Source: Erythrobacter litoralis (GTDB lineage: Bacteria; Pseudomonadota; Alphaproteobacteria; Sphingomonadales; Sphingomonadaceae). From it: 64,000 nucleotides of DNA. Location of the stretch: contig NZ_SOSI01000002.1 of NCBI RefSeq assembly GCF_029760855.1, positions 186,001 to 250,000 on the forward strand, read 5' to 3'. The position numbers and the translations under genes are program-made. This document shows positions 1,744 to 47,516 of this stretch, in pieces (the stretch's first letter is position 1; every line of letters starts with the position of its first letter). The notes below the pieces were generated by a model. That model had not been told where the DNA came from, searched no databases, and was given only the letters and a program-made list of their open reading frames with translations.

Positions 1744-2988
1744 TTATCTCTCCGGTTTCTCGAGGGTCACATGGTGGACGTCGATCCCGCCACCGCGGAA
1801 CCCGCCCTCGCAATACATCAGGTAATAGCGCCACAAATCACAGAATTGCGCGTCAAAACCCGGCGGAAGCCGTCCTGTGGACAAGGCGGTATCGAAATTC
1901 TCCCGCCAGATGCGCAGCGTTTCTGCATAATCGAGGCCGAAATCGACCTGATCTTTCCAACGTAATCCGCGCTGCTCGGCCAGTCGGCGGAACTCGCTGG
2001 TCCGGATGAGCAGACCGCCCGGGAAGATATAAGCCTGGATGAAATCGGCGCTCTGAACATAATCCTCGAACAGATCGTCACGCATCGAGATATACTGGAT
2101 GGCGGACCGTCCACCTGGCTTCAGCCGTTCGGCAACGCAGTCCATGTAGGCGGGCCAGTATTCGCGGCCCAGTGCTTCGACCATCTCGACGCTGACGATG
2201 GCGTCGAACTGCCCGACGGCGTCGCGATAGTCCTGCTTGCGGAAATTCACGCCGATGTCGTGATGCGCGCGGGCCCAGGCAAGCTGTTCTTCCGAGAGGC
2301 TGATGGCGGTCACGTCCATTCCGCGCGCGGCGAGATCGGCGGCGAGCCCGCCCCACCCGCATCCGATCTCGAGCACCGTCTTCGCGCCCGCGATGCGTGA
2401 CGCCAAAGCGTCCCACTTGCTTCGTTGTGCCGCCGCCAGATCGCCCTCACCGACCTCGATCGCCGAAGAGTAGCTCATAGTCTCGTCCAGCCAAGCGGCG
2501 TAGAAGTCGTTGCCCAAGTCGTAATGGGCGGAGATGTTCTTGCGAGCGCCATGATGCGTGTTACGATTGACGAAGTGCGCGAGCTTCAGGGCATGGCGGA
2601 ACGGACCCTTGGCGCGTGCCGTATCGCCCAGCCGCTCGGCATGCTGCATGAACAGGGCGAACAGCGGCACCGGATCGGGACTCCACCATTCCCCCGCTTC
2701 CCACGCCTGATACCAGCCGACCGACCCGTTGCTTGCAAGCCGAACCAGCGCGTTCCAGCTGCGCAATTCGACCGTGCATTCGAAGCCCGGCGTCCTGCCG
2801 CCAAGCGTACGCCGTGTTCCATCGGGAAGAACCGCATGAAGCGCGCCCGATGTCAGCGCCAGGTCGATCCGGTCGATGATCTTCGAAAAACCCGGCGCAA
2901 TCAGGCGCGCAAATACGCTCGGTTTACGCGCAAAACGTCTCGCGCTTGCACGAAGATCGCGCCCCCTGTCTGATACCGGCATGTCCAT
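1744..2988 (-). CDS. cfa: Cyclopropane-fatty-acyl-phospholipid synthase
   Basis: 414-residue SAM-dependent methyltransferase that adds a methylene group to cis double bonds of membrane phospholipid acyl chains. Visible signatures are YDLGNDFY followed by LDETMSYSSA (substrate and bicarbonate region of CFA synthases) and the SAM-binding loop VLEIGCGWGGLA at about 200-211. The C-terminal part with GLLIRTSEF is also typical. Length is normal for the family. It lies 44 bp downstream of the photolyase gene and 3 bp upstream of the serine hydrolase, all on the minus strand, so the three probably form one transcript. Photolyase with CFA synthase is a known pairing in light and singlet-oxygen responses of other alphaproteobacteria such as Rhodobacter sigma-E. 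Confidence 0.92.
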   Translation of the reverse strand: MDMPVSDRGRDLRASARRFARKPSVFARLIAPGFSKIIDRIDLALTSGALHAVLPDGTRRTLGGRTPGFECTVELRSWNALVRLASNGSVGWYQAWEAGEWWSPDPVPLFALFMQHAERLGDTARAKGPFRHALKLAHFVNRNTHHGARKNISAHYDLGNDFYAAWLDETMSYSSAIEVGEGDLAAAQRSKWDALASRIAGAKTVLEIGCGWGGLAADLAARGMDVTAISLSEEQLAWARAHHDIGVNFRKQDYRDAVGQFDAIVSVEMVEALGREYWPAYMDCVAERLKPGGRSAIQYISMRDDLFEDYVQSADFIQAYIFPGGLLIRTSEFRRLAEQRGLRWKDQVDFGLDYAETLRIWRENFDTALSTGRLPPGFDAQFCDLWRYYLMYCEGGFRGGGIDVHHVTLEKPER

Positions 2989-3032
2989 CAGCCGCGCGCT
3001 ATGCCCCCCGCGCCGCCGCCGTACAAGTACCG

Positions 3033-4427
3033 CTAGTCCTTACTCGCTCGATAGGCTTTCAGCGCCCGCTCACGGGCCTCCTTGTGAGCGATGATCTTTT
3101 TGGGATAGTCGCCGCGCTTTTCGTCGGGCGGATCATGGATGTTTTCGTCCGAGAGATCGGCCAGTTCGGGAACGTATGCACGAATATAATCGGCGGCGTC
3201 GAACTTCTCGCTCTGGCTTAGCGGCGCCATGATGCGGCTGAACATGTTGCTGTCCACCCCGGTGCCGGAAATCCACTGCCAGTTGACGCCATTATTACCG
3301 TAATCGGCATCGACGAGACAGTCCCAGTACCACAGCTCGCCATGCCGCCAGTCGATCAGCAAATGCTTTACGAGAAAGCTGGCACAGATCATCCGCACCC
3401 GATTGTGAATCCATCCGATGTTCCACAATTGCCGCATCCCCGCGTCGACGATGGGATAGCCGGTCATGCCTTTCTGCCATGCCGTCAAATCCTCCGCGAT
3501 GAGGTGCCCGGCATTCGGATTGCGCCACAACGTCCGCTCATCGTAATCGCGATAGCTTTCGCGGGCATAGTCCGGATATTGCATGATCACATTCTGGGTA
3601 TAGTCGCGCCAGATCAATTCCTTGGCGAATGTATCCCAGCCCTTTCCCCGGCGGCCTTTTAGTTTGTGCCACACAGTGACGGGCGAAATCTCGCCCCAAT
3701 GAAGATGGGGCGACAGGCGGGAAGAGCCATCTTTCGCCGGAAGGTTGCGGGCATCGTCGTATTCGCTGACGTCTTCTTCCCACGCATCGAGCCGCTTATG
3801 CGCGGCGGCCTCGCCGAATTCCCAGAACTCGCGGATGCCGCCTGTCCAGTCGGGGTCGGATGGTAGCAGGTCCCAATCGGACAGATCGTCGCTTTCGGGC
3901 CAGCTATCGGGCGAATGGATGGTATCAGGCTCGCCGAGTTCGTCGCGCGGCGGCATTTCCTCCAGCATTGCGCGCGAGAACGGCGTGTAAATCTTGTACG
4001 GGTTGCCGTCATTCGTGGTGACGGTGCCGGGCGGCAACAGGTAGTTGCCGTCATGAAGGCACAGACTGCAATCCTCGCCCAACGCGTCGCGAAGCTCGTC
4101 TTCTGCCTCTCGCCACCATGGTTCGTAGTGGTGCATGGCGTGGATGCATTCAGCTCCCGTCTCGTCGGCGATCGACGCCAGAACCTGCGGGGCATCACCG
4201 CGGCGCAGGACGAGCTTCGACCGCCTCCCCCCTAAACTCTTGTCCAGGCTCTCCAGCGAATGATGTAACCATACCTTCGATGCGGCGCCCAGCTTGTGAT
4301 CCCCACCCCGCTCGTCGTCGTAGACATAAACGGGAATGACGGGACCGGCTTCGGCGGCGGCATGGAGGGCGGGCTGGTCGGCAAGGCGCAGGTCGCGCCG
4401 GAGCCAGACGATCTGGGGTTTGCTCAT
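3033..4427 (-). CDS. phr: Deoxyribodipyrimidine photo-lyase
   Basis: 464-residue class I CPD photolyase, a cytosolic flavoprotein that repairs UV pyrimidine dimers using blue light. The N-terminal antenna domain starts IVWLRRDLRLADQPAL. The C-terminal FAD domain carries SRLSPHLHWGEISP, the Trp-rich WRDYTQNV segment, PIVDAGMRQL, HNRVRM and a GVDSNMFSR-type C-terminal signature. Length is standard. The start ATG at 4427 lies only a few bases from a predicted EcfG-type -10 element, so the transcript may be almost leaderless. First gene of the phr-cfa-hydrolase operon, divergent from the PAP2 gene at 4469. Confidence 0.95.
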   Translation of the reverse strand: MSKPQIVWLRRDLRLADQPALHAAAEAGPVIPVYVYDDERGGDHKLGAASKVWLHHSLESLDKSLGGRRSKLVLRRGDAPQVLASIADETGAECIHAMHHYEPWWREAEDELRDALGEDCSLCLHDGNYLLPPGTVTTNDGNPYKIYTPFSRAMLEEMPPRDELGEPDTIHSPDSWPESDDLSDWDLLPSDPDWTGGIREFWEFGEAAAHKRLDAWEEDVSEYDDARNLPAKDGSSRLSPHLHWGEISPVTVWHKLKGRRGKGWDTFAKELIWRDYTQNVIMQYPDYARESYRDYDERTLWRNPNAGHLIAEDLTAWQKGMTGYPIVDAGMRQLWNIGWIHNRVRMICASFLVKHLLIDWRHGELWYWDCLVDADYGNNGVNWQWISGTGVDSNMFSRIMAPLSQSEKFDAADYIRAYVPELADLSDENIHDPPDEKRGDYPKKIIAHKEARERALKAYRASKD

Positions 4428-4436
4428 CGTTCACGG

Positions 4437-4462
4437 AACGGAAGCCGGCGGGCCCTTGTTCC
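4437..4462 (-). promoter_or_regulatory. Candidate EcfG (general stress) promoter of phr
   Basis: On the minus strand GGAAC (4462-4458) is followed after exactly 17 bases by CGTT (4440-4437), the GGAAC-N16/17-CGTT consensus of alphaproteobacterial EcfG-type sigma factors. The predicted transcription start is near 4430 and the phr ATG is at 4427, so the leader would be only a few bases. On the plus strand the same DNA reads GGAAC (4435-4439), N17, TGTT (4457-4460), one base off consensus, aimed at the PAP2 gene. Sigma-factor assignment is inferred from the motif. Confidence 0.6.
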
Positions 4463-4468
4463 CCTCGC

Positions 4469-5158
4469 ATGAAAGGCTCGTCGCGTATCAGCAAATTGCC
4501 GCATCGCCATCCGCCGATAAGCAGGCGGGTCTCAGCGGTGCTGGCGTTCATATGCTGGGCCGGTTTCGGCGTAATCGCCTATCTTGTTCTGAACGGTGCG
4601 ACGGGTGCTTTCGATCGCTGGGGCCTTCTGTCCTACCGCATGGCGGACAGCCTCGCCTTCGGCGGACCGGAGCGCGTGTTCGAAGCCGTTCGCGATGCAA
4701 CTGCGCTTGGCGGTATATTCCTGCGCAATCTCTTTGTGCTGGGCGCGATAGCCGCCCTGTTGTTCCTCCGTTTGCGGCGGGAGGCGCTTTTGTTTTTCCT
4801 GACCGTTACGAGCGGCTGGTTGGTAAGCGGATTGCTCAAGCTGCTTGTCGGGCGGGAGCGACCGGAAATCGTCCCGCATCTGATGGCGGCGGGCGGGGGC
4901 AGCTTTCCTTCGGGTCACAGCTTCGGCGCGGCGGTGGTCTATATCGGGATGGCGCTGGCCTTTTCTTCGCTTTCGGGGCGGCAGACCGTCCGCATCACCG
5001 TGGTTGCGAGCAGCGTCGTGGTCTCGATGATGGTGGCATGGAGCCGCGTGCTTCTCGGCGTACACTATCCAACCGACGTGATCGCAGGCTGGCTCGGCGG
5101 AGCGGGCTGGGCACTTGCTTCGGTGGCACTGTTCTCGCGGGCCGTGCACCACCGCTAA
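4469..5158 (+). CDS. PAP2 family phosphatase
   Basis: 229-residue integral membrane phosphatase of the PAP2 (phosphatidic acid phosphatase type 2) superfamily. The three catalytic motifs are all present: K-x6-RP as KLLVGRERP, PSGH as SFPSGHSF, and SR-x5-H-x3-D as SRVLLGVHYPTD. Several hydrophobic helices surround them, the first starting near residue 22. The substrate could be phosphatidate, undecaprenyl pyrophosphate or another lipid phosphate and cannot be told from sequence. It is divergent from phr with 41 bp between start codons, in a region with overlapping face-to-face GGAAC elements, so co-regulation under stress is possible. Confidence 0.88.
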   Translation: MKGSSRISKLPHRHPPISRRVSAVLAFICWAGFGVIAYLVLNGATGAFDRWGLLSYRMADSLAFGGPERVFEAVRDATALGGIFLRNLFVLGAIAALLFLRLRREALLFFLTVTSGWLVSGLLKLLVGRERPEIVPHLMAAGGGSFPSGHSFGAAVVYIGMALAFSSLSGRQTVRITVVASSVVVSMMVAWSRVLLGVHYPTDVIAGWLGGAGWALASVALFSRAVHHR

Positions 5159-5161
5159 GGT

Positions 5162-6073
5162 TCAGGAAACCGCGCAGGTGCCGGGCGGAAGCTGGACCGA
5201 GAACCGGTCACCCGCACGCGGATCGTAGAATCGCGCATCGCGCAGCCATTGGGAGCCATCCTCGCGCAGTTCGATCAACGGCGTACGTGACCACATCAGG
5301 AATGCGTCGATCCCGGCGTCGCCTTGGCGCGCCCTCGCCAGATCGCAGAGTTCGAGCGGGACGCCAGGCAGAACGGTGCCGTCGATTGCGTAGAGTCCGT
5401 TGCCGCCCGTGATAACTTCGCGCCGGGAAGTGCGTAGCGGAGGCGGGCTTGCAATCACGACATCGGCGCCCGTCGGCGTATCGACAGGTGCACGTTCGGC
5501 ATTCCAGGTTATCGCGGATTGCACTCCGATATAGGCGAGTACTGCCGACAGCGCGACGCGCGCAGGCCGCTTCCATTCCCCGCCCCGCTTCTCGCGCCGG
5601 AGCGAGAACCACGTCGCGAAGCCCATGCCGAGCCACAGCACCGGATCGATGATGAACAGGATGTCGCCATAGAACCAGCGGTCGCTGAACGGCATAAGCA
5701 GGCGAATGCCATAGACATTCAGCCAGTCGAGCGCCGGATGGGTGAGGCATCCGATAAGCGATAATGCGTAAAGCCAACCGAACCGCACCGGAAGGCGGTT
5801 ATCGGGCCGCTTGCCGCGTTTCGCCTGCCAGCGGTCGAACGCCCAAAGCAGTCCGGCCAGAATAAGCGGCAGGAGTATCCACGCTGGCGGACCGTGCGTT
5901 ATTCCCCGGCGGAAGCCGAGATGTTCAGTCCCATCGAGCCATAGGAAACAGGCGGCATCCACATCGGGTAGGTTCGCGCCAATGATGAGCGCTGGCATGG
6001 CCAGCCCCGTCTTGCGCTTCAGCCCCGCTTGCCCGATCAGCGCGCCCACGAGGCTATGGGTCAGATTGTCCAT
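5162..6073 (-). CDS. Membrane-bound metal-dependent hydrolase (YdjM family)
   Basis: 303-residue multi-pass membrane protein of the YdjM/LexA-binding inner membrane hydrolase family (DUF457-like). The N-terminus MDNLTHSLVGALIGQAG, the LPDVDAA metal-ligand motif, RRGITHGPPAW and THPALDWLNVYG are conserved in this family and supply His/Asp ligands. Several transmembrane segments follow, and the C-terminal about 100 residues look soluble. Biochemical function is not established for the family. It ends 3 bp from the convergent PAP2 stop codon. A hairpin at 6132-6162 separates it from the EF-hand gene upstream, so it is probably transcribed on its own. Confidence 0.82.
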   Translation of the reverse strand: MDNLTHSLVGALIGQAGLKRKTGLAMPALIIGANLPDVDAACFLWLDGTEHLGFRRGITHGPPAWILLPLILAGLLWAFDRWQAKRGKRPDNRLPVRFGWLYALSLIGCLTHPALDWLNVYGIRLLMPFSDRWFYGDILFIIDPVLWLGMGFATWFSLRREKRGGEWKRPARVALSAVLAYIGVQSAITWNAERAPVDTPTGADVVIASPPPLRTSRREVITGGNGLYAIDGTVLPGVPLELCDLARARQGDAGIDAFLMWSRTPLIELREDGSQWLRDARFYDPRAGDRFSVQLPPGTCAVS

Positions 6074-6131
6074 GCGCGTTTGTCAATTGCCGACCCTCTA
6101 AAGGCAAGACCAATCACCGGCCATTCAACAA

Positions 6132-36835: not shown

Positions 36836-37678
36836 ATGCCCGATACCGATCCCGACACCCAGACCGACCCCCGCCCCGCCCTCACCGATTTCGCCCCCGT
36901 CCCGCGCCAGCGCATGCGTCGCGGCGGGTGGAGCGCCCAGCGCCAGCGCCGCTTCATCGAACTGCTCGCCGAAACCGGCAGCGTGCGCGCCGCCTGCCGC
37001 CGCATGGGCGTGGGCGAGCACCATATCTACAAGCTGCGCCGCCACCCCGAGGCCGACGGCTTTCGCAAGGCATGGGAAGCCGCGCTCGATTGCGGCATCG
37101 CCCGGATCGAGGACGTCGCCATGGACCGCGCGCTCAACGGCGTGGAGGAGCCCGTCTATCACCGCGGCGAGCTGGTCGGCACGCGCCGCGTCTACAACGA
37201 CCGGCTGCTCATGTTCCTCCTGCGCAACCGCGCGGCCGATCGCTTCGGCGAATGGCGCAACGCCGCCGCCCCCGGCCCGGGCAGTACGAAGGACCGCGCG
37301 GCGCTGGAAAAGCAGTGGCACAGGGAATGGGAAGCCGCCCGCAATGCCCGCGCTGGCGAGGACGAGGACGCCGTGATCGCCAGCATCGATGCGAAGCTCG
37401 CCGACATGCACGCGCGCTCTCTCAACGCCATGAGCCCCCGCACCCGCGCCGCCTACGACGAATACAAGCGCTGCGAGCAGGAGGACAAGGACACTGGCTA
37501 CCTGTGCTGGGACGACCCGGACCACGAAGCCTATACAGACCGCCACGCCCCGTTCGACGACGAGGACGATGGCACCCCGATCCCCCTACCCCCACCCGAA
37601 TGGCGCAAACGCGAGGTGGAGGAGAGCGAGGCGGAGAACCCGCGCTGGCGGCGGGTCAAGGATGAGGGGTGGGAGTGA
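36836..37678 (+). CDS. Helix-turn-helix protein, terminase-small-subunit-like N-terminus
   Basis: 280-residue protein with an N-terminal helix-turn-helix domain at about 30-85 (RFIELLAETGSVRAACRRMG, then IYKLRRHPEADGFRKAWEAA). Such domains appear in phage terminase small subunits and in sphingomonad genes of unknown function. The middle has YHRGELVGTRRVYNDRLLMF and RAADRFGEWR. The C-terminus is rich in Glu, Asp, Arg and Pro and probably disordered. AGGAAAG precedes the ATG. No other phage gene lies nearby, so it is probably an ordinary chromosomal gene rather than prophage. It is the last gene before the R-M spot. Confidence 0.6.
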   Translation: MPDTDPDTQTDPRPALTDFAPVPRQRMRRGGWSAQRQRRFIELLAETGSVRAACRRMGVGEHHIYKLRRHPEADGFRKAWEAALDCGIARIEDVAMDRALNGVEEPVYHRGELVGTRRVYNDRLLMFLLRNRAADRFGEWRNAAAPGPGSTKDRAALEKQWHREWEAARNARAGEDEDAVIASIDAKLADMHARSLNAMSPRTRAAYDEYKRCEQEDKDTGYLCWDDPDHEAYTDRHAPFDDEDDGTPIPLPPPEWRKREVEESEAENPRWRRVKDEGWE

Positions 37679-37742
37679 AGCCCCGCGAATAGCGCAGGCG
37701 TTTGTAAAGCAAACCGCAGGCTTGGTGCGAAAAGCTGTAACG
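37679..37742. other. Non-coding gap upstream of the R-M repeat
   Basis: With the repeat (37743-37834) and 76 bases beyond it, the whole intergenic interval between the HTH gene and the R-M gene is 232 bases. The first part has a weak GTTTG/CAAAC hairpin around 37698-37713 and no gene. A dyad GGAACG (37816-37821) / CGTTCC (37833-37838) lies about 70 bases before the R-M start. Confidence 0.5.
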
Positions 37743-37834
37743 CCGGCCGGCGGGTCTGCGCAGCGGAACCCGATCGACGTTACGTGACGCATGGAACGAT
37801 TGCGCCAGCAATCGCGGAACGGCGCGTGACGGCG
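37743..37834 (+). repeat. Left arm of inverted repeat flanking the R-M gene
   Basis: 37743-37791 matches the reverse complement of 41021-41069 at 43 of 49 positions, and 37818-37834 matches the reverse complement of 41004-41020 at 16 of 17. Between the two blocks the left arm carries 26 extra bases (37792-37817) including a CGATTGC/GCAATCG stem-loop and flanked by GGAACG twice. The arm lies 77 bp upstream of the R-M start. Confidence 0.8.
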
Positions 37835-37910
37835 TTCCCGCTCGACTATATGCGGAGCAAAACCTTTGCTTTTTCACTCCATTACTCAATAGCTGGCTCA
37901 TGGAGGGCAT

Positions 37911-40900
37911 ATGAGCCGGCAGCTTATCAATGAATATCGCAGCGATCTCGATCGCATCGTAAAGGTTGGCGGCAGCCTGAACGAAGGCTCCGTGCGCGAT
38001 GCCTTCCAAGGCCTGCTGAAAAGCTGGGGCCGTTCCAGAGACCTCACTTACCTTTCCGAACACAAGATGACCGGCAGCGGCGGCAATATCTGGGTTGATG
38101 GCGCGCTGGTTTACGATATCCGCGTTCCTTTCGGTTATTGGGAAGCAAAAGACAGCCGCGACGATCTCGAAGATGAAATCCGTAAGAAGGAAGCCAAGGG
38201 CTATCCAAAAACGAATATCATTTACGAAGATACGCGGCGCGCGATCCTGATACAGGACGGCAAGCGCGCTGCCGAAGCGGACATGACCGAGACCGAGGAG
38301 CTATACACGCTTCTCACCCGCTTCTTCGCCTACGAGCAGGAAGCGATCCGCGACTTCCGCAAGGCCATCGCCAAGTTCGCCGAAGACCTGCCCGCCATCC
38401 TCGACGCGCTGCGCGAACGCATTCGCGACAAGCGCGAGGCCAGCCCCGACTTCGCCAAGGCCGAGGAGGCCTTCCTCAAACAGGTCAAGGAAACGATCAA
38501 TCCCGCGCTGGAGCGGGCCGACGTCACCGAGATGCTGATCCAGCACATCCTGACCGAGGACATCTTCAACCGCGTGTTCGACATGCGCGATTACCACCGC
38601 GACAACAACATCGCGAAGCAACTCTATGCGCTGGACGAGAAGTTATTCGAATATGGCGACCGGCGCTCGCTGCTACAGGCGCTGCGGCCATATTACACCG
38701 GAATCGAGGAAACCGCGCACCTGATCCAGAGCCATTCGGAAAAGCAGAACTTCCTGAAATCGCTCTACGAGAATTTCTACAAGGTCTACAATCCCAAGGC
38801 CGCCGACCGTTTGGGTGTGGTCTACACGCCGGGAGAAATAGTCCGCTTCATGATCCGCAGCGCGGATTGGCTGTGCGAAAAGCACTTCGGCAAGAACCTC
38901 GTCGATCAGGGCGTCGAAATCCTCGACCCGGCGACGGGCACAGGGACCTATATCGTCGAGCTGCTCGAATATTTCCGCGGCCAGCCGAACAAGCTGCGGC
39001 ACAAATACAAGGAGGAACTGCACGCCAACGAAGTGGCGATCCTGCCCTATTACGTCGCCAACCTGAACATCGAAGCGACCTATCAGGCGATCACCGGTCA
39101 GTTCGCCGAGTTCGAGGGGCTATGCCTTGTCGATACGCTGGACAATGTTGATGGGCTGGGCATCCATTCGGGCCACCAGTTCGACATGCTGGGCGCGCTG
39201 AGCGACGAGAATATCGAGCGCGTAAAACGGCAGAACCGGCGGAAGATCAGCGTGATTATCGGCAATCCGCCTTACAATGCGAACCAGCGGAACGAGAACG
39301 ACAACAACAAGAATCGCGAATATCCGCATATCGATAACCGGATAAAGCGGACCTACATCAAGGAGAGCACGGCGCAGAAGACCAAGCTCTACGATATGTA
39401 TTCGCGTTTTTATCGCTGGGCGAGTGACCGGCTGGGCGATGAGGGAATAATTGCGTTCATCACTAACCGTAGCTTTATCGAGAGCCGGACCTTTGATGGG
39501 TTTCGCAAGGTGGTGGCCGCAAACTTTGACGACATTCGGATTGTTGATTTGGGCGGTGATGTGCGGGTCAACCCCAAGCTATCCGGTCCCACCCATAACG
39601 TCTTTGCGATACAAACCGGTGTTGCAATCATGTTCCTTGTTCGGAGCAAGTCCAAAGGTCGGCCTCGGATAAAGTATGTTCGGCGGCCAGAGGAAGAGCA
39701 CGCAGAAGATAAACTCTCTTGGCTTGGCAAGAACCTCATCGACGAACTCGATACTCAAACGATCAAACCCAATGACAAAGGCACTTGGCTTAACCAGATT
39801 GAACCCAGCGAATGGGACGACTTTCTGCCGATCGCAGACAAGGTAGCAAAGTCTGCCGAAGGGAAGCGCGGAGACCGCGCTATTTTTAAGTTGTTTTCGC
39901 TTGGTGTCAAAACGAACCGCGACGACTGGGCAGTCTCTCGTTCCTTACAGTTCCTTGAGGCGGTGTACCATTATCACCTTAAGGAATACCGCAATTTGGT
40001 CCAAGATCTGCCTCAAGGTAAATTGGACTACCGGCAAATCGATTTCAATGATCGGATCAAGTGGACAAGAAAGACCCGTAAGCTGGCAGCAGCGAGAACG
40101 GAGCTGGAGGCCACACCAAATCCGGTCTCGTCACTTTATCGACCTTTTGACAACGAACTGACAAATTATCTTTGGCAGTTCAACGAGGATCACTACCAAC
40201 TCGCTCGCATTGAGCGTGATAATTCTTTCCCACGCTCCATTTTGATCAGCGGCCAACCTGCGTCGAAGCCCTTTCAGGCTCTGGCGATTCAGAAGTTGTG
40301 GCATCACGATACACTCGAAAAAGCGACCGGGCTATCTCGTTACCGCTACACAAAGTCGGGCGAGCGCACCGACAACATTAGCGACTGGGCGCTCAACAAG
40401 TTTACCAAACACTATGGCAAGAAGGCAGGCGTCACAAAGGACGCGATCTTCGCCTATTGCTATGCCGTCCTGCACGATCCAGTCTATCGCGCAAAATACG
40501 CGCTGAACCTCAAGCGCGAGTTCCCGCGTATCCCATTCTACCCTGACTTCGCGCAATGGGTGCAGTGGGGCGAGACGCTGCTGGGCCTGCATATCGATTA
40601 CGAGGAGGTCGAGCCGTATTCGCTGGAGCGGGTCGATACGCCCAACCCCAAGCGCGCCGAGGGTTCGCATCCAAAGCCCAAGCTCAAATCCGTGATTGCT
40701 GATGGGGCCGACACCGGCAGCGTGGTGGTGGACGAGGATACGCAAATCACCGGCATCCCGGCGGGCGCGTGGGACTATCGCCTTGGCAATCGCAGCGCGA
40801 TCGACTGGGTGCTGGACCAGCACAAGGAAAAGAAACCGCGCGATCCCACCATCCGCGAGAAGTTCAACACCTATCGCTTCGCCGATTACAAGGAGAGCAT

Positions 40901-40997
40901 GATCGAACTGCTCGCCAAGGTCGTGCGGGTGAGCGTCGAGACGAATGCGATCACCGATGCGATGGCGGCATTGGATAGGAGCGATTGGGACCGCTAG
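37911..40997 (+). CDS. Single-polypeptide restriction-modification enzyme (type ISP/IIG-like)
   Basis: 1028-residue enzyme combining nuclease, adenine methyltransferase and target recognition. An N-terminal PD-(D/E)xK-like site is seen as Asp63/Asp69 and E-A-K at 78-80 (GYWEAKD). A helical linker (about 120-290) leads to the N6-adenine methylase: SAM motif DPATGTG at 339-345 and catalytic NPPY at 452-455, after VVYTPGEIVRFM. The C-terminal half (about 560-1000) is the target-recognition region. No helicase motifs are visible, so it is shorter than LlaBIII-type ISP enzymes. It is isolated, AT-richer in the middle, and bracketed by inverted repeats, all signs of transfer. GGAGG lies 4 bases before the ATG. 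Confidence 0.87.
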   Translation: MSRQLINEYRSDLDRIVKVGGSLNEGSVRDAFQGLLKSWGRSRDLTYLSEHKMTGSGGNIWVDGALVYDIRVPFGYWEAKDSRDDLEDEIRKKEAKGYPKTNIIYEDTRRAILIQDGKRAAEADMTETEELYTLLTRFFAYEQEAIRDFRKAIAKFAEDLPAILDALRERIRDKREASPDFAKAEEAFLKQVKETINPALERADVTEMLIQHILTEDIFNRVFDMRDYHRDNNIAKQLYALDEKLFEYGDRRSLLQALRPYYTGIEETAHLIQSHSEKQNFLKSLYENFYKVYNPKAADRLGVVYTPGEIVRFMIRSADWLCEKHFGKNLVDQGVEILDPATGTGTYIVELLEYFRGQPNKLRHKYKEELHANEVAILPYYVANLNIEATYQAITGQFAEFEGLCLVDTLDNVDGLGIHSGHQFDMLGALSDENIERVKRQNRRKISVIIGNPPYNANQRNENDNNKNREYPHIDNRIKRTYIKESTAQKTKLYDMYSRFYRWASDRLGDEGIIAFITNRSFIESRTFDGFRKVVAANFDDIRIVDLGGDVRVNPKLSGPTHNVFAIQTGVAIMFLVRSKSKGRPRIKYVRRPEEEHAEDKLSWLGKNLIDELDTQTIKPNDKGTWLNQIEPSEWDDFLPIADKVAKSAEGKRGDRAIFKLFSLGVKTNRDDWAVSRSLQFLEAVYHYHLKEYRNLVQDLPQGKLDYRQIDFNDRIKWTRKTRKLAAARTELEATPNPVSSLYRPFDNELTNYLWQFNEDHYQLARIERDNSFPRSILISGQPASKPFQALAIQKLWHHDTLEKATGLSRYRYTKSGERTDNISDWALNKFTKHYGKKAGVTKDAIFAYCYAVLHDPVYRAKYALNLKREFPRIPFYPDFAQWVQWGETLLGLHIDYEEVEPYSLERVDTPNPKRAEGSHPKPKLKSVIADGADTGSVVVDEDTQITGIPAGAWDYRLGNRSAIDWVLDQHKEKKPRDPTIREKFNTYRFADYKESMIELLAKVVRVSVETNAITDAMAALDRSDWDR

Positions 40998-41003
40998 AGC
41001 TAG

Positions 41004-41069
41004 CGCCGCCACGCGCCGTTTGCGTCACGTGACGTCGAACGGGTTCCGCTACGCGGCCCCGCCGGCCGA
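41004..41069 (-). repeat. Right arm of inverted repeat flanking the R-M gene
   Basis: Reverse complement of the left arm at 37743-37834: 43 of 49 positions over 41021-41069 and 16 of 17 over 41004-41020, without the left arm's 26-base insertion. It contains GTCACGTGAC, a perfect 10-bp palindrome at 41024-41033. It starts 7 bp after the R-M stop codon. No transposase and no clear target duplication is visible. Confidence 0.8.
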
Positions 41070-41109
41070 TGCTCGCGATGCGCTGGCGCGCACCGACTTC
41101 TAACTTGTC

Positions 41110-41125
41110 GCTTGGCTAGCCAAGC
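41110..41125. repeat. 16-bp perfect palindrome GCTTGGCTAGCCAAGC
   Basis: Perfect 16-bp dyad 25 bp from the 3' end of lepA on the minus strand and 40 bp outside the right R-M repeat. It could be a lepA terminator stem or a protein site; no T-run follows in either direction. Confidence 0.45.
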
Positions 41126-41149
41126 TCCGGCGTTAGGCGCCCTTGCTCG

Positions 41150-42967
41150 CTACTCCTCCCCCATCCGAAGAGCAGCGATAAACGCCTCCTGCGGAATGCT
41201 CACGTTCCCATACTCGCGCATGCGGGCCTTGCCCTTCTTCTGCTTCTCGAGCAACTTCTTCTTGCGCGTGATGTCACCGCCGTAGCATTTGGCGGTAACG
41301 TCCTTGCGCAGCGCGGCGATCGTCTCGCGGGCGATGATCTTCCCGCCGATCGCGGCCTGTATGGGAATCTTGAAAAGATGCCGCGGAATCAAGTCCTTAA
41401 GTCGCTCGCACATGCCGCGGCCGCGCTCTTCCGCCACGCTGCGATGGACGATCAGCGAGAGCGCGTCGACCGGCTCGTTGTTGACGAGAATGTTCATCTT
41501 CACGAGATCGCCTTCGCGTAGTCCGATCTGCTCGTAATCGAAACTGGCATAGCCGCGGCTGATGCTTTTCAACCGGTCGTAGAAGTCGAACACCACTTCG
41601 TTCAGCGGCAACTCGTAACTCACCTGCGCCCGCCCGCCGACATAGGTAAGATCGGTCTGGATCCCGCGCCGATCCTGGCACAGCTTGAGGATCGCGCCGA
41701 GATATTCGTCGGGCGCGTAAATCACCGCCTTGATCCACGGCTCCTCCACCGTGTCGATCCGGTTCACGTCCGGCCAATCGGCAGGATTGTGAACATCGAT
41801 CGTCTTTGCGTCCTCGGTCTTCGTATGGCCGAGATGGACGCGATAGACGACGCTCGGCGCCGTTGTGATGAGGTCGAGATCGTATTCGCGGCTCAGGCGT
41901 TCTTGAATGATCTCAAGATGCAGCAGCCCGAGGAAGCCGGCGCGGAAGCCGAAGCCAAGCGCGGCCGAGCTTTCCATCTCAAACGTGAAGCTGGCATCAT
42001 TGAGCCGCAGCTTGCCGATGCTTTCGCGCAGCTTCTCGAAATCGGCGGCGTCGACCGGAAACAGGCCGCAGAACACCACCGGCTGCACTTCCTTGTAGCC
42101 TTTGAGCGGAGCGGCGGCGCCGTTCTTGACCGTCGTGATCGTATCGCCGACCTTGGCTTGTTCGACCTCCTTGATCTGCGCGGTGATGAAACCGATCTCG
42201 CCCGGTCCGAGTTCGGGCAAGTCGGTGCGCTTGGGCGTGAAGCAGCCGACGCGGTCCACCAGATGCTGCGTGCCGCCCTGCATGAATTTTACGTTGAGCC
42301 CCTTTGTAAGCACCCCGTCCATCACACGCACCAAAATGACGACGCCGAGATACGGATCGTACCAGCTATCGACCAGCATCGCCTTCAACGGCGCGTCGCG
42401 GTCGCCAGTCGGCGCGGGAATGCGGGCGACGAGCGCTTCCAGAGTATCCTCGATCCCGATGCCGGATTTGGCGCTCGTCAGCACCGCGTCGCTAGCATCC
42501 AGTCCGATGATGTCCTCGATCTCCGCCTTTACCTTTTCGGGTTCGGCAGCAGGAAGGTCGATCTTGTTGATAACAGGAACGATCTCGTGATCGTGCTCAA
42601 TCGACTGGTAGACGTTGGCCAGCGTCTGCGCTTCCACACCTTGTGCCGCATCGACGACAAGCAGTGCGCCCTCGCAAGCGGCGAGGCTGCGGCTGACTTC
42701 GTAGGCGAAGTCGACATGGCCTGGCGTGTCCATGAGGTTCAACTCATAGGTCTCACCGTCCTTCGCGGTAAAATTCAAGCGCACGGTCTGCGCCTTGATC
42801 GTGATGCCGCGCTCCTTCTCGATGTCCATGTTATCGAGCACCTGCTCGGACATCTCTCGATCGGTCAGGCCGCCGCAGACTTGGATCAGCCGGTCCGCCA
42901 AAGTGGACTTACCGTGATCGATATGGGCGATGATGGAGAAATTGCGGATCTTGGAAAGGTCGGTCAT
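41150..42967 (-). CDS. lepA: Translation elongation factor 4 (LepA)
   Basis: 605-residue translational GTPase that acts on stalled or mis-translocated ribosomes. G motifs: [22 protein letters not shown] and [13 protein letters not shown]. The LepA C-terminal domain with [20 protein letters not shown] is present, so it is not EF-G. The ATG at 42967 ([11 protein letters not shown]) fits the family start; an in-frame ATG 12 bases upstream would add MARA. No clear ribosome site is seen ahead of either. Confidence 0.96.
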
Positions 42968-43018
42968 TGCGCGCGCCATGTAGCGCCGCCGCCCGCCCCT
43001 GTCAGCCGCTTTCGCGCG

Positions 43019-45223
43019 TCAGCTCGCCTGCGGTCCACCGCCTTGCGCCGGTGCGTTGGCGGAGAGTTTGAACTGCGCGAAACCGCCCGCAGGTGAGACG
43101 CCGAGAACCCGGCCCGAGCTTCCGCCCGGCAAAGCCTGCAGCGGAACACCTGCCGACGCCAATTCATAAGGCGAAACCCGGTGGCGGGTACACAACCCCC
43201 CTGCACCATCGTCGACCAGCTCGCTTTCGAACTCGAGGCCCTGCGTATCGTCCATCGAACGTTTTACCGTACAAACGGCAAGCTGCCCGCCGCCGAAGTC
43301 CAGAACGAAGTTCGTTCCGGTCGGCACATCCTCCAAGCCCTGGATCATTGCGCCTGTGCGCGAAAGGTTGCGCAAGGTGACTTCGTAATAATAGTCCTCG
43401 TGAATGAGGCCGACCCGCCTGAAAACAGTGCGCCGATTGGCCCGCTGGCTGCCTGCTTCACTCGGTGCGATGTGCCAGTCGCCGCTCGCAATTTCCTGAT
43501 CGACCGCTTCTCCGGGCAAAGCCTCGGCAAAAACGAAGCCTTGGACCTGATCGATACCGATGTCCTTCAACTCGCGCATCAAGGCCATCGCGTGAACGCC
43601 GCTTGCCGCCGTCTCCATGCCCATTGCATCCGCAAGCGCAACGACGGCACGGACCATTTCCATGTCCCCAAGCTCGTTGCCCAGCATCGGTTCGAAGAAA
43701 TTCGCGCCGATCTTCAAAGTGTTGAGCGGTGCCCGGCGCAGATAGCTGATCGACGACAGACCCGTACCGAAACGATCGAGAGTCAACCGCACACCCAGCT
43801 TAAACAACGCCGCGAGAACCTTTTCGACTTTCGCCGCATCCCCGAGCAGCACTGTCTCGGGCAATTGCAATTCGAGTCGCGCCGGATCTATGCCGCTTTC
43901 TTCAAGCGCGGACTCGATCAGTTCCGCAAAGCCGATCGCCTCGAACTGAACGGGGCTGACGGTCATTACCAAACGGAGTGCGTCGGGCCACCGTTTCGCA
44001 TCTTCGAGCGCTTTGCGAAGACCCCACTCTCCAACCGGAATGATCAGGCGGCTTCCCTCGGCAATGGGCAGGAACGTCTCGGCCGGAACCCGGCCGCGTT
44101 CGTCGTCCTGCCAACAGAATTGCGCTTCTAAGGCGACAACGCGGTTCGAGGCCAATTCGACCACTGGCTGGTATTCGAGCGTGAAGTGACCTTCCTCGAT
44201 CGCTTGTGCGAGGTCGTCCTCCATTCGCTTTCGCAGGTTTGCCTCGTGCTCGAGGTCGGCAGCGTAAAAGCGGAACTGACCGCGTCCGCCATTCTTGGAT
44301 GCGTAAAGCGCCAAGTCCGCCGCCCGGCAAAGGTCGTCTCGCTCTATGCCGTCATAGGGCGCGATTGCGATCCCGACCGAACATCCGATAGTCGCACGAC
44401 CTTCCTCGACCGAATAGGGCTGGGAAAGCATCGCAATGATCTTCTTCGCGATTTCCCCGAGCTCGCCGCGATCGTCCATGTCCGGAATGAGGACCTGGAA
44501 TTCGTCGCCGCCGAGCCGGGCGATTTCGCCCCTGCCTGCCAAGGCCCCCCGAAGACGTTCGGCGACCTGCTGTAGAAGCTGGTCGCCCGCCGCGTGGCCG
44601 AGCGTGTCGTTGACCTGTTTGAACCGGTCGAGATCGAGCATCATCAATGCCGCCGAACGTTCTGCATTGCGAAAGGCGTGCAGCGTGGCATCGATGCGCT
44701 GTTCCATCCGGTGCCGGTTGGAAAGGCCCGTCAGCGAATCGTATTTCGCGAGGCGATTGGCTTCTTCCTCACTGCGGAATTCTTCGGTGATGTCGGCGGC
44801 GCTGCCACGAAAGCCGAGAAATTCGCCTTCCGCATCGAAAGCTGGACGGCCCGATAGCCTGAGTACGAGATCGATCCCCCGCGCTTCCAGTTTGACGACG
44901 ACCCCGGTGAAGCTTTTACGAGTGCCGAGCTTGAGACCCAGCGACCGGGACTCGCTGTCGTCGGCGAGCGGTACAAACACCTTTTGAACAGGCTGTCCGG
45001 CGAGGCGCGCAGCATTGTCGCCTAACTCGTTTTCAATAGCAGGGCTTAGATATTTCAAACCGCCCGAGGCGTCGCTTGCCCAGAAGGAGATGACACCCGT
45101 TTCCTCGAGCTGCTCCACGATAGACAGCTTGTCGGCTGCGGCAAAGGCGGAAAGGCGGCTTCCGTCACCTCCGTCTGCAGCCTTGCGGCCCTTGAACAGT
45201 TCCGAGAAGGGCATTGCCCCCAT
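43019..45223 (-). CDS. PAS-GGDEF-EAL-PilZ protein with degenerate EAL
   Basis: 734-residue c-di-GMP signalling protein. A PAS domain lies at about 40-150, GGDEF at 238-242 is intact (RLGGDEF), and a PilZ domain is at about 597-690 (RRTVFRR, NLSRTG). The EAL domain is degenerate: EAQ at 366-368, DRFGTG at 483-488 in place of DDFGTG, KIGANFF in place of KID, and ASGVH in place of AEGVE. The RxxD product-inhibition site before GGDEF is missing. It is likely a diguanylate cyclase whose EAL part is a sensor. A tandem paralogue at 45318-47516 keeps all EAL residues. Confidence 0.9.
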   Translation of the reverse strand: MGAMPFSELFKGRKAADGGDGSRLSAFAAADKLSIVEQLEETGVISFWASDASGGLKYLSPAIENELGDNAARLAGQPVQKVFVPLADDSESRSLGLKLGTRKSFTGVVVKLEARGIDLVLRLSGRPAFDAEGEFLGFRGSAADITEEFRSEEEANRLAKYDSLTGLSNRHRMEQRIDATLHAFRNAERSAALMMLDLDRFKQVNDTLGHAAGDQLLQQVAERLRGALAGRGEIARLGGDEFQVLIPDMDDRGELGEIAKKIIAMLSQPYSVEEGRATIGCSVGIAIAPYDGIERDDLCRAADLALYASKNGGRGQFRFYAADLEHEANLRKRMEDDLAQAIEEGHFTLEYQPVVELASNRVVALEAQFCWQDDERGRVPAETFLPIAEGSRLIIPVGEWGLRKALEDAKRWPDALRLVMTVSPVQFEAIGFAELIESALEESGIDPARLELQLPETVLLGDAAKVEKVLAALFKLGVRLTLDRFGTGLSSISYLRRAPLNTLKIGANFFEPMLGNELGDMEMVRAVVALADAMGMETAASGVHAMALMRELKDIGIDQVQGFVFAEALPGEAVDQEIASGDWHIAPSEAGSQRANRRTVFRRVGLIHEDYYYEVTLRNLSRTGAMIQGLEDVPTGTNFVLDFGGGQLAVCTVKRSMDDTQGLEFESELVDDGAGGLCTRHRVSPYELASAGVPLQALPGGSSGRVLGVSPAGGFAQFKLSANAPAQGGGPQAS

Positions 45224-45317: not shown

Positions 45318-47516
45318 TCAACGCGGTGGGTGCGGATCGACCTGCATGAACCTGCGGGGCGATTGTCCGGCCGAATTGCCCGCAATCAAGCTGTAGGCAT
45401 CTTGCGGCAGGGCCGAAAGCGGCTTCCCCGCAGCTTCGATTTCGTACGGGGACACCCGATGCCGGGTGCAGAAACCTTCAGCCCCGTCGCTGATGAGGGG
45501 TATTTCGAATTCAAGTCCCTGAGAGTGCGCGAACGAGCGGCGTACGGTCGCTACCGCCAACTGCCCTCCACCGAGATCGAGCACAACGTCGGTACCAAGC
45601 GGAACGTCCAGCAAACCCTCGATCATCGCGCCGGTTTTCGAGATGTTGCGAAGGACTACGCGGTAACGATGATCCTCGTGGATCAAGCCCACCCGGCGGA
45701 ATACGGTCTTGCGTTCGGCACGATATTTTGCCGGGCCGCGGGGTTCGTATTCGAGATCGCCGCGCGCCAGTCGCTCGAGTACCTCGTCATGGGCAATAGC
45801 GCGGGAGAAGATATAACCCTGAACGCTGCTGGCGCCGCGATTTTTGACGAGTTGCAATTCGTCGTGCGTTTCGACGCCCTCGGCGACCGTTTCCATGTCG
45901 AGCGCTTCGGCAAGACCGACGATCGCACTCATGATCGCAGCGTTGTTGTTGCCCTCTTCGGTCGCACCGCGAACGAAGCTCTGGTCGATCTTGATCTTGT
46001 CGAACGGCGCCGTGCGCAGGTAGCTCAAGGACGAGTAACCCGTACCGAAATCGTCGAGCGCGAGGCGGATACCGAGGTTTTTCAACTCCTCGAACATGCG
46101 CTGGGTTCGACCATTGTCACCCATGAACACGCTTTCGGTAATTTCGAGCTCCAGACGCCGCGGATCGAGCCCAGATGCCTGTAAGGCGCGCTGGACGACC
46201 TGCGGAAAGTCGTCATGGGCGAATTGCACCGCAGACACATTGACGGCGACGCGTAACTCCAGCGGCCATTCCTGCGCCTGTCGGCAGACCTCGTGTAGCG
46301 CCCAATCGCCGATCTGCTTAATGATGCCGATGTCCTCGGCCACTGGAATGAACTGGCTTGGAGGAACGTTGCCTCGCTCCGGGTGATCCCAACGCATGAG
46401 CGCTTCGAGCGCCTTCAATTTGTGCGTTTTCGCATCGATGATCGGCTGGTAGAACATGCGCAGCTCGTCCTTGACGAGGGCGTCGCGCAAATCCTCCTCG
46501 GTCTGACGGCGAAGCTTCGCGCCGTCCTTCAGGTCGCTGGAATAGAACCGGTATTGCCCTCGCCCTCCGCCCTTGGCGGCATAAAGAGCGAGGTCGGCAG
46601 CTTTGATCAGCTCGTCAGTGTCGAGCCCGTCATAGGGCGCGATGGCCATCCCGACCGAAGTGCCGATGATTGCCCGCGATCCGTTGATCGAATAGGGCTG
46701 CGAAATCATCTGAATTAGGCGGGAGCCGATATCGCCCAATTGCCCACGGTCGTCGATATCGGGCAGCATGATGAGGAATTCGTCCCCGCCGAGCCGGCTG
46801 ATTTCTCCCTTATTGCCGATGATACGATCGAGCCGCGCGGCGACCTGCTTCAACAACTCGTCGCCCGCAGGATGGCCGAGCGTGTCGTTCACCTGCTTGA
46901 AACGGTCGAGATCGAGCATCATCAAGGCACAGGTGCGCTTTGAATTGCGATAAGCTTTCAACGTCGAGGTAAGGCGTTTCGTGATGCGGTGGCGATTGGC
47001 CAATCCGGTCAGCGAGTCGTATTGTGCGAGCCGCTCGGCGTCGCGTTGGGTTTCGCGAGTGGCAGTGATATCCTTCGCGCTGCCGCGATACCCAGCGAAT
47101 TCTCCTTTCGCATCGAATTCCGGCTTCCCGGCAATTTCCCACCAGATTTCCTCGCGCGTTCCCGCCAGCTTCACCGGAAGCTGCGTGATCGAATTGCGTG
47201 CGCTGAGGAGGAAGGCCAGCGGCCGCTCGGGCCGGTCCGGATCGTCAGATTGTTCTGCCATAAAGAGATCGCCGAGCGGCTTGCCCAAGACCTCATCGAC
47301 ATTCCAGCCGAGCTTTTCGGGCGCGGTATCGGACAGATAGATAAGCCGGCCCAAACTATCGGTCGCCCAGAACCACCCGAGCCCGGCCTTCTCGAAACTG
47401 TCGAGCAGTTCGACCCGGCGCATATGGTCCGACTGCCCGATCGGAGAGAATGCAGCAGGATCGCTCTCGCTGCTATTCTTCACCGCACGCAGACCGCGGG
47501 AGAAAAATCCGGCCAT
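45318..47516 (-). CDS. PAS-GGDEF-EAL-PilZ dual diguanylate cyclase/phosphodiesterase
   Basis: 732-residue paralogue of the preceding protein with the same order: PAS at about 35-155, GGDEF at 243-247 (RLGGDEF), EAL at 371-373 (ALEALMRW), and PilZ from about 600 (ERKTVFRR, NISKTGAM). The EAL catalytic set is complete: DDFGTG at 488-493, KIDQSF and EGVE at 546-549. Both synthesis and hydrolysis of c-di-GMP are possible. The I-site RxxD before GGDEF is absent. Both genes read on the minus strand 94 bp apart. Confidence 0.92.
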   Translation of the reverse strand: MAGFFSRGLRAVKNSSESDPAAFSPIGQSDHMRRVELLDSFEKAGLGWFWATDSLGRLIYLSDTAPEKLGWNVDEVLGKPLGDLFMAEQSDDPDRPERPLAFLLSARNSITQLPVKLAGTREEIWWEIAGKPEFDAKGEFAGYRGSAKDITATRETQRDAERLAQYDSLTGLANRHRITKRLTSTLKAYRNSKRTCALMMLDLDRFKQVNDTLGHPAGDELLKQVAARLDRIIGNKGEISRLGGDEFLIMLPDIDDRGQLGDIGSRLIQMISQPYSINGSRAIIGTSVGMAIAPYDGLDTDELIKAADLALYAAKGGGRGQYRFYSSDLKDGAKLRRQTEEDLRDALVKDELRMFYQPIIDAKTHKLKALEALMRWDHPERGNVPPSQFIPVAEDIGIIKQIGDWALHEVCRQAQEWPLELRVAVNVSAVQFAHDDFPQVVQRALQASGLDPRRLELEITESVFMGDNGRTQRMFEELKNLGIRLALDDFGTGYSSLSYLRTAPFDKIKIDQSFVRGATEEGNNNAAIMSAIVGLAEALDMETVAEGVETHDELQLVKNRGASSVQGYIFSRAIAHDEVLERLARGDLEYEPRGPAKYRAERKTVFRRVGLIHEDHRYRVVLRNISKTGAMIEGLLDVPLGTDVVLDLGGGQLAVATVRRSFAHSQGLEFEIPLISDGAEGFCTRHRVSPYEIEAAGKPLSALPQDAYSLIAGNSAGQSPRRFMQVDPHPPR

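What the first reader, a model, noticed from the sequence alone, without database searches (positions are those of the whole stretch)
37743..41069. R-M gene bracketed by 66-bp imperfect inverted repeats
37743-37791 and the reverse complement of 41021-41069 agree at 43 of 49 positions; 37818-37834 and 41004-41020 agree at 16 of 17. The left arm has an extra 26-bp stem-loop segment flanked by GGAACG twice. The arms enclose exactly one gene, a type ISP/IIG-like R-M enzyme, with no transposase. They could be remnants of a mobile unit, two opposite copies of a dispersed element into which the gene inserted, or paired regulatory sites.
Basis: seen in the sequence. Interest (0 to 1): 0.72.

Follow-up and report, generated by a model that had tools for sequence, protein, structure and literature searches.

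The report
Inverted borders of a defence-gene slot
The two inverted repeats around this restriction-modification gene look not like transposon ends but like folded border elements of a small, fast-changing chromosomal slot in which related bacteria keep different genes, often anti-virus genes, of about 3 kb.

Summary
The inverted arms are real (48 nt at 90%, 17 nt at 94%). They are inner parts of a 150-175-nt element, E, with four helices kept by compensatory changes. E is not dispersed: the own genome has two copies; strong matches lie at one locus in 21 of 21 (60 genus genomes), 14 of 14 (298 family genomes) and 10 of 10 (GTDB contigs; the surveys overlap).

The locus is a hypervariable slot between a terminase-small-subunit-like gene (36836-37678) and lepA. 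Cargo differs in nearly all of 41 species sampled and is often defence-type; the R-M gene is the present tenant. E flanks both sides in 7 genomes and is absent from 31 of 41 sites, so turnover does not need it. Duplicated lepA ends, E/lepA discordance and constant HNH orientation favour homologous replacement over transposition or inversion; no exchange was seen directly.

Unexpected: slot length is narrow (median 3,117 bp; 33 of 35 within 1.85-4.0 kb), and the left gene is a paralogue of the genome's GTA small terminase. A core defence hotspot at a new locus.

The parts
36836..37678 (+). left rim gene: 280-aa terminase-small-subunit-like protein (TerS), paralogue of the small terminase of the genome's own GTA cluster
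   Evidence: phrog_4044 terminase small subunit E 1.1e-24; Foldseek vs viral models E 3e-7 to a phage TerS, vs PDB no match at E <= 0.001; 31% identity over 164 aa to the GTA TerS, E 3e-11 in a one-to-one comparison, 4.9e-4 in the whole-genome search; present at 35 of 41 sites
37676..37834 (-). border element E, left copy (outer type A), reading from cargo side to the stop codon of the left gene
   Evidence: cmsearch 153 bits; it is one of the 18 copies the model was built from
37744..37791 (.). left arm of the inverted repeat (inner part of E)
   Evidence: 90% complementary to 41021-41068
37792..37817 (.). hairpin H1, present in the left copy and in 17 of 18 aligned copies, missing from the right copy
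37911..40997 (+). cargo: 1028-aa type IIG-like R-M enzyme with ISP coupler, N6-MTase and ISP C-terminal specificity domain
   Evidence: Pfam PF18135, PF22240, PF07669, PF02384; PADLOC REase_MTase_IIG residues 6-1021
40994..41149 (+). border element E, right copy (outer type B, H1 missing), ending at the lepA stop codon
   Evidence: cmsearch 124 bits; also in the model
41021..41068 (.). right arm of the inverted repeat
41150..42979 (-). right rim gene lepA (EF4)
   Evidence: Pfam LepA_C 3.3e-50

Best explanation
The R-M gene is the current tenant of a conserved, hypervariable gene slot, often filled with defence genes, between two convergent genes, a terminase-small-subunit-like gene and lepA, in Erythrobacteraceae. 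The inverted arms are two copies of a folded border element (E) that lies directly 3' of each rim gene; the copies are inverted simply because the rim genes converge. Cargo of about 3 kb is replaced as a block by homologous recombination of incoming DNA that carries rim-gene (and, where present, E) homology, sometimes with an illegitimate join on one side that leaves a duplicated lepA 3' fragment. E probably serves as a structured 3'-end element that separates rim-gene and cargo transcription, and secondarily as extra homology. Shown: locus specificity of strong matches, cargo diversity, covariation, lepA fragments, E discordance. Inferred: recombination as the motor, block replacement, and E's role.
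For: Strong E matches all at the slot: 21 of 21 genus hits of at least 32 bits (lepA positions), 14 of 14 family hits of at least 62 bits, 10 of 10 GTDB contigs. TerS-like gene beside lepA at 35 of 41 sites. 94 cargo ORF products of at least 120 aa form 71 clusters, 62 of them singletons; 36 of 37 sites with such products hold one found at no other site. Of 24 of these 37 sites that lack the HNH cluster, 16 have a protein matching PADLOC at 1e-10 or better; the other 13 hold the HNH gene. Covariation: 15 of 31 pairs changed on both sides, 45 cells; slid controls 1-6 pairs; 0 of 500 shuffles reach it. lepA 3' fragments duplicated in L147, L148, L154 (two), L157, L109, L205 and L223. E and lepA identities can disagree: G328-G326 lepA 95.4% / E 86.6%, G328-G305 lepA 86.7% / E 92.4%. 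The HNH gene points to the TerS-like gene in 12 of 12 full-length close copies in the genus sites, 15 of 15 with two fragments and a distant homologue, and 5 of 5 in other genera. The six R-M homologues at 61-75% identity show no lepA within 1.5 kb and no E beyond short chance-like pieces.
Against: 31 of 41 sites give no E (at most 15.9 bits), so any role in exchange is dispensable; 3 of the 10 E-bearing sites have only partial copies (L148, L152, L160). Outer types A and B occur on both sides (left B / right A in L133, L156, G184; left A / right B in the window), which a purely gene-specific 3' element would not predict. E and lepA identities still correlate over 78 pairs (r = 0.55; mean 0.753 against 0.858), and part of the E difference is type A against B. 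No same-species strain with another tenant was at hand, so no replacement was seen. No U-tract was noticed, and terminator-like sites are no more than in shuffles (5 against 4.8). Compensatory changes can also come from quasi-palindrome correction without selection, and the structure counted was derived from the same alignment. One HNH subfamily is slot-specific (16 of 16 close homologues), which simple random acquisition would not predict. At 8 of the 24 non-HNH sites none of the proteins scanned matched PADLOC at 1e-10 (L142, L143, L144, L145, L147, L154, L156, L157).
Confidence: 0.72

Rival explanations
1. A mobile insertion cassette: E copies are long terminal inverted repeats of a non-autonomous transposon that carries the R-M gene and is moved in trans.
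For: Inverted orientation, close bracketing of one gene, cargo of lower GC, R-M homologues elsewhere.
Against: No strong copies at other sites; E-less slots hold varied cargo as well; different cargos between the same borders; outer ends reach the rim-gene stops; no target duplication seen by eye.
Confidence: 0.05
2. Site-specific recombination sites: E is an attC-like folded single-strand or att site at which an integrase swaps cassettes.
For: Multi-hairpin, pairing conserved through sequence change; outer hairpin of some copies looks like TTCTAAC...GTTAGGC; fast cargo turnover.
Against: The AAC/GTT core varies (pair 141-171: A-U in 10, G-C in 7 of 18 copies); copies inverted rather than direct; 31 of 41 sites lack E; no integrase in the window's slot.
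Confidence: 0.08
3. E is only a regulatory 3' element (bidirectional attenuator, terminator or mRNA stabiliser, BIME-like) of the two convergent genes and has no part in exchange.
For: In the copies read, gene stop then outer hairpin then core; absent from most slots; one hairpin shared with repeats at other sites.
Against: E identity between genomes is in part discordant with lepA, so E itself seems to recombine; no strong copy found behind other genes.
Confidence: 0.35
4. Slot cargo is spread by gene transfer agents; particle capacity sets the about 3 kb size, and the slot's TerS-like protein may help load the slot DNA.
For: Narrow slot length (CV 0.23, n=35, against 0.97, n=33, for the neighbouring proA-TerS interval); RcGTA carries about 4 kb and the C-terminus of its TerS contacts TerL (PMC6854486, passages); the left gene is a GTA-TerS paralogue; GTA structural genes are in this genome, and a GTA marker gene in 31 of 60 genus genomes.
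Against: Slot length is the same with and without the GTA marker (median 3,139 bp, n=18, against 3,073, n=17); RcGTA packages at random and its TerS is reported to bind DNA without specificity (passages); TerS-like matches are numerous (up to 11 per genome) and the TerS2-ppk interval is not size-constant.
Confidence: 0.12

Closest known systems
Core defence hotspots cDHS1/cDHS2 of Pseudomonas aeruginosa (PMC10250203; abstract and passages seen)
   Same: Conserved flanking core genes, hypervariable defence cargo, lower GC, not obviously one mobile element, exchange suspected by transfer plus recombination in conserved flanks
   Different: There size runs 1-224 kb and 0.3-168 kb; here 33 of 35 slots are 1.85-4.0 kb, with locus-specific folded border elements and a TerS-like rim gene, across species and genera
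Hotspots without mobility genes that turn over by homologous recombination in flanking core genes (PMC5635113; passages)
   Same: No integrase or transposase needed; flanks are the homology
   Different: No border element or size limit in the passages seen
BIME/REP-type palindromic mosaics (recalled)
   Same: Mosaic of hairpins at gene 3' ends; one E hairpin occurs elsewhere in some genomes
   Different: Strong full E matches are confined to one locus, 1-2 per genome
Mobile insertion cassettes (MIC, recalled) and IS-linked movement of an R-M system (PMC3031569, listing with start of abstract only)
   Same: MIC: passenger gene between inverted repeats without transposase
   Different: Here no copies at other sites, no target duplication seen, other cargo between the same borders
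RcGTA small terminase gp1 (PMC6854486; passages)
   Same: The rim gene is homologous to the TerS of this genome's GTA cluster
   Different: The rim gene lies beside lepA, away from the GTA cluster, and has an N-terminal HTH-like part, which RcGTA gp1 is reported to lack; function untested

Membership tests
Core defence hotspot | conserved flanking core genes across genomes | tested here: met
   lepA in 56 of 60 genus genomes; TerS-like gene beside it at 35 of 41 sites
Core defence hotspot | hypervariable, defence-rich cargo of lower GC | tested here: met
   71 clusters for 94 ORF products; PADLOC match at 1e-10 or better at 16 of 24 sites without the HNH gene, HNH gene at 13 more; slot GC 0.46-0.63 where the left gene is present against 0.62 for the window
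Core defence hotspot | wide size range as in cDHS1/2 | tested here: not met
   median 3,117 bp, IQR 2,818-3,362, range 1,851-6,120, n=35; not a formal requirement of the kind
Transposon / mobile insertion cassette | copies at unrelated sites | tested here: not met
Transposon / mobile insertion cassette | target-site duplication | tested here: not met
   outer flanks read by eye only: no direct repeat at the outer edges
Integron cassette / attC | conserved RYYYAAC/GTTRRRY core boxes (recalled) | tested here: not met
   core pairs vary across copies
BIME/REP-type repeats | many dispersed extragenic copies | tested here: not met
   full E two copies in own genome; only the middle hairpin and weak full-length matches occur elsewhere
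Type ISP R-M enzyme | nuclease, translocase, coupler, MTase and specificity domain in one chain (recalled) | tested here: not met
   coupler, MTase and ISP_C found, no translocase domain among Pfam matches at 0.001
Type IIG-like R-M enzyme | restriction and methylation in one polypeptide | tested here: inconclusive
   PADLOC family REase_MTase_IIG over residues 6-1021; activity not testable; an N-terminal EAK motif is seen by eye
Terminase small subunit | sequence and fold of TerS | tested here: met
   1.1e-24; viral models; GTA TerS; model confidence only moderate, pLDDT 66, pTM 0.41; no significant PDB match, best 0.45 to an SPP1-like TerS
Terminase small subunit | recognises a packaging site and recruits TerL | not testable with these tools
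   needs binding and two-hybrid assays

The most novel reading that the evidence does not exclude
The slot is a gene-transfer-agent satellite: a small terminase paralogous to the GTA's own binds the folded border element E (or another slot sequence) as a pac-like site and docks on the GTA large terminase, so that the about 4-kb block of TerS gene plus cargo is loaded preferentially into GTA particles; particle size then fixes the slot at about 3 kb, and recipients swap the block by recombination in lepA, TerS and E. GTAs would thus be a dedicated defence-exchange system.
Probability: 0.08. Interest if true: 0.9.

Novelty: new variant of a known kind. Interest (0 to 1): 0.6.

Why it matters
It turns a curious inverted repeat into a mapped gene slot shared across a bacterial family, with fixed rims, a narrow capacity and slot-specific parts (E, one HNH subfamily, a GTA-related TerS). 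That makes two open questions testable in environmental bacteria: how chromosomal defence genes move without mobile elements, and whether GTAs carry them. It also gives a small hunting ground: most cargo clusters are unshared, and 8 of 24 sites without the HNH gene gave no PADLOC match among the proteins scanned.

Tried and rejected
Dispersed repeat in the own genome: rejected. Known RNA family: no Rfam match at E up to 1. Single-copy folding energy of the arms: no better than shuffles, z -0.86 to 0.94; the structural case rests on covariation alone. Integron attC: rejected on the varying core. Inversion of the E-cargo-E block: suggested by A/B types swapping sides, but HNH orientation is constant, so not adopted; only HNH slots test this. 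E tied to HNH cargo: about as expected by chance in the genus sample (judged by eye, no formal test). GTA-limited size: no difference between genomes with and without the GTA marker, so kept only as a rival. TerS2-ppk as a second constant-size slot: intervals of about 144, 1079, 1336, 2303 and 4065 bp in 5 of 19 loci, no ppk in the fetched stretch of the other 14, so rejected. Terminator and promoter scan: nothing that bears on E. Core matches at E about 1e-3 to 1e-6 were checked at six loci; by eye they look like chance matches, mostly in coding sequence.

Limits of the survey: one genome per species; of 55 other lepA-bearing genus genomes 40 were fetched, the best lepA scores except two on short contigs. 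Cargo genes are mechanical ORFs, so some are false and the number of unshared proteins is inflated. Families: only the first 25 of 252 and of 43 are shown; the 76 proteins (at least 200 aa) leave out the window's own, those of L149, and in L150 all ORFs far from lepA. Searches scanned 30 proteins from 22 sites, not every ORF. The cut-offs 32 and 62 bits were chosen after seeing the gaps in scores; below them 8 genus hits (30 bits or less) lie away from the slot, and so do many family hits of up to 60 bits. The model was built from copies of the slot, which favours finding slot copies. The genus, family and GTDB surveys share genomes: at least 5 of the 10 GTDB contigs carry an E identical to one already held, and the GTDB tool may leave out the window's own genome. 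Weak full-length matches also fall beside lepA or a TerS-like gene in G275, G290, G274 and G053.
Full report
Observation. The window holds two inverted arms, 37744-37791 / 41021-41068 (90%) and 37818-37834 / 41004-41020 (94%), far above background in the window. Between them lies one 1028-aa gene. Its Pfam domains are ISP coupler, N6-MTase/Eco57I and ISP C-terminal specificity domain; PADLOC files it over residues 6-1021 as a type IIG restriction enzyme-methyltransferase. No translocase domain is among the Pfam matches, so it is ISP-related but not a full type ISP enzyme.

Copy number and place. The own genome (10 contigs, 2.97 Mb) has only these two copies. In 298 family genomes the left arm matches other genera that lack a close copy of this R-M gene. 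Reading those matches outward showed that the conserved unit continues past the arm through a further hairpin up to the end of a neighbouring gene. I call the 150-175-nt unit E. A covariance model from 18 chosen copies gives 29 matches in 60 genus genomes at E up to 0.01; the 21 of at least 32 bits (E 1.5e-5 or better) all lie within 3.5 kb of lepA, and the 8 of 30 bits or less lie elsewhere. In 298 family genomes all 14 matches of at least 62 bits, in 11 genomes, are at the same place; below that, hits of up to 60 bits are mostly at other sites, and a few are again beside lepA or a TerS-like gene (L205, L213, L207, L220). A degenerate pattern of the core gave 10 contigs (11 matches) in the GTDB collection of 84,980 species, titled Erythrobacter, Qipengyuania, Citromicrobium, Alteriqipengyuania or Sphingomonadaceae MAG; all 10 carry lepA or the TerS-like gene in the fetched stretch of up to 8 kb. 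Qipengyuania belongs to Erythrobacteraceae. The three surveys overlap; at least 5 of the 10 contigs repeat copies already held.

The slot. I fetched 20 kb on the lepA 3' side of 40 genus genomes (40 of the 55 others with lepA). With the window that is 41 sites. At 35 the left gene (36836-37678 in the window) precedes lepA; between them the cargo differs nearly every time. Of 94 cargo ORF products of at least 120 aa, 62 have no relative at another site (30% identity, half the shorter length, E 1e-10), and 36 of 37 sites with such products hold at least one unshared; false ORFs inflate this. Among 76 products of at least 200 aa, Pfam families include HNH_2 (13), C5-MTase (4), D12 MTase (4), MazG_C (3), Mrr (2), Eco57I (2), reverse transcriptase (2), and once each GmrSD, AIPR, EcoRI methylase and others; also one chemotaxis domain and one IS1595-type transposase. 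PADLOC matches at 1e-10 or better were found at 16 of the 24 sites that lack the HNH cluster (window, L123, and 14 of 22: methyltransferases, a restriction enzyme, a DRT reverse transcriptase, HerA, dGTPase, PD-Lambda-5 and weaker ones); at 8 none of the scanned proteins matched. The other 13 of the 37 hold the HNH gene. Slot GC is 0.46-0.63 where the left gene is present against 0.62 for the window. Sites L149 and L162 run from the proA side to lepA without the TerS-like gene or cargo.

Where E occurs. E is found at 10 of the 41 sites, 3 of them partial (L148, L152, L160); the 31 others give at most 15.9 bits. Seven genomes have it on both sides, inverted with the core facing the cargo: G000, G308, G328, G347, G326, G184, G047; one copy of the pair is partial or weak (64-89 bits) in G347, G326, G184 and G047. 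The window's right copy lacks hairpin H1 that 17 of 18 aligned copies have. Three outer types occur (A, B, C); A and B are found on both sides.

Structure. On the MAFFT alignment, 31 pairs in four helices are formed in 95.8% of cells; 15 pairs have changes on both sides (45 cells), against 1-6 pairs for slid versions, and 0 of 500 shuffles reach the observed values. The structure was derived from the same alignment, and shuffles do not keep relatedness, so this is strong but not a probability. Single sequences do not fold better than shuffles. Rfam has no match. A 45-bp hairpin of E resembles repeats found elsewhere in some genomes.

How the slot may turn over. Duplicated lepA 3' fragments of about 59 to 234 bp lie beside the intact lepA in L147, L148, L154 (two) and L157, that is 4 of 41 sites, and in L109, L205 and L223, as expected of incoming DNA that carried another lepA end with one illegitimate join. 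E identity does not simply follow lepA identity: G328-G326 95.4% lepA but 86.6% E; G328-G305 86.7% lepA but 92.4% E; G339-G015 89.8% lepA, 94.2% E; yet over all 78 pairs the two correlate (r 0.55). The HNH gene points to the TerS-like gene in 12 of 12 full-length close copies (15 of 15 with two fragments and one distant homologue) and in 5 of 5 in other genera, so inversion between the E copies is not frequent. Six R-M homologues at 61-75% lie in other genomes with no lepA within 1.5 kb and no E there; a distant relative (34%, partial) does lie beside E at lepA in G121. I therefore favour block replacement by homologous recombination at the rims, as proposed for mobility-gene-free hotspots (PMC5635113, passages) and for Pseudomonas cDHS1 (PMC10250203, passages). 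This is inference: no replacement between sister strains was seen.

Two surprises. First, size. Slot length from the left gene's stop to lepA's stop has median 3,117 bp, IQR 2,818-3,362, 33 of 35 between 1.85 and 4.0 kb (range 1,851-6,120); CV 0.23, against 0.97 (n=33) for the neighbouring proA-to-left-gene interval. The Pseudomonas hotspots span 1-224 and 0.3-168 kb. Second, the left gene. It matches phage terminase small subunits (PHROG 4044, 1.1e-24; viral fold models; no significant PDB match) and is 31% identical over 164 aa to the protein encoded at the start of this genome's GTA cluster, overlapping the start of the TerL frame (one-to-one E 3e-11; 4.9e-4 in the genome search). The cluster has TerL, portal, protease, capsid and tail genes. 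13 of 35 slot TerS proteins match that GTA protein at E up to 0.01, in a search of those 35 only. RcGTA carries about 4 kb, and the C-terminus of its TerS contacts TerL (PMC6854486, passages); GTA genes are reported in about half of Sphingomonadales (PMC9836097, passages). Against a GTA link: slot length is the same in genomes with and without the GTA marker; TerS-like matches are many, up to 11 per genome; a second TerS locus beside ppk is not size-constant. I keep it as the bold reading.

One HNH subfamily is slot-bound: 16 of 16 close homologues (75% identity or more, nearly full length) in 60 genus genomes lie within 3.0 kb of lepA, while 9 distant ones (42-51%) lie elsewhere. Why is unexplained.

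Novelty. In the held library, searches for lepA with hotspot/defense/Erythrobacter, Erythrobacteraceae with hotspot/R-M/lepA, R-M with inverted repeats, GTA with defence and hotspot, GTA with Erythrobacter, hotspot with flanking core genes and GTA with small terminase listed no paper whose title or abstract start describes this slot or element; only the top 2-20 papers of each search were listed. The comparison of 14 Erythrobacter genomes does not contain the word lepA (PMC4919336, term search). Most subscription papers are not covered. The kind (core defence hotspot) is known; the locus, its border element and its narrow size appear new on that basis.

Noticed in passing
L234 (G000:C4:515500-533452): RcGTA-like cluster in the window's genome: TerS, TerL, portal, protease, capsid, DUF2460, Gp84-like hub, Rcc01698-like.
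   Followed up: partly
L235:3254-3928 and L236:3271-4179: Two more TerS-like genes in the own genome, beside a KAP NTPase and (by eye) a polyphosphate-kinase gene, and beside an 842-aa ORF and (by eye) a uvrA-like gene; genus genomes hold up to 11 TerS-like matches.
   Followed up: partly
L161:17669-18562 and 15 other genus genomes: A 298-aa HNH_2 nuclease subfamily, mostly 86-92% identical between species; all 16 close homologues in 60 genus genomes lie in this slot, in one orientation where checked.
   Followed up: partly
L147, L148, L154, L157, L109, L205, L223: Duplicated lepA 3' fragments beside the intact gene; L154 carries two.
   Followed up: partly
L160 (G299): Near-empty site with an outer-type-A E at lepA and the tail of a cargo protein similar to one at L138, like a decayed tenant (seen by eye).
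   Followed up: no
window 43019-45223 and 45318-47516: Two tandem ORFs that look like GGDEF-EAL proteins (by eye), near lepA.
   Followed up: no
L117-L120, L122: A 45-bp hairpin (CGTGACGTC...GGCCGG) related to the middle of E lies at other sites in several family genomes; a possible REP-like family.
   Followed up: partly
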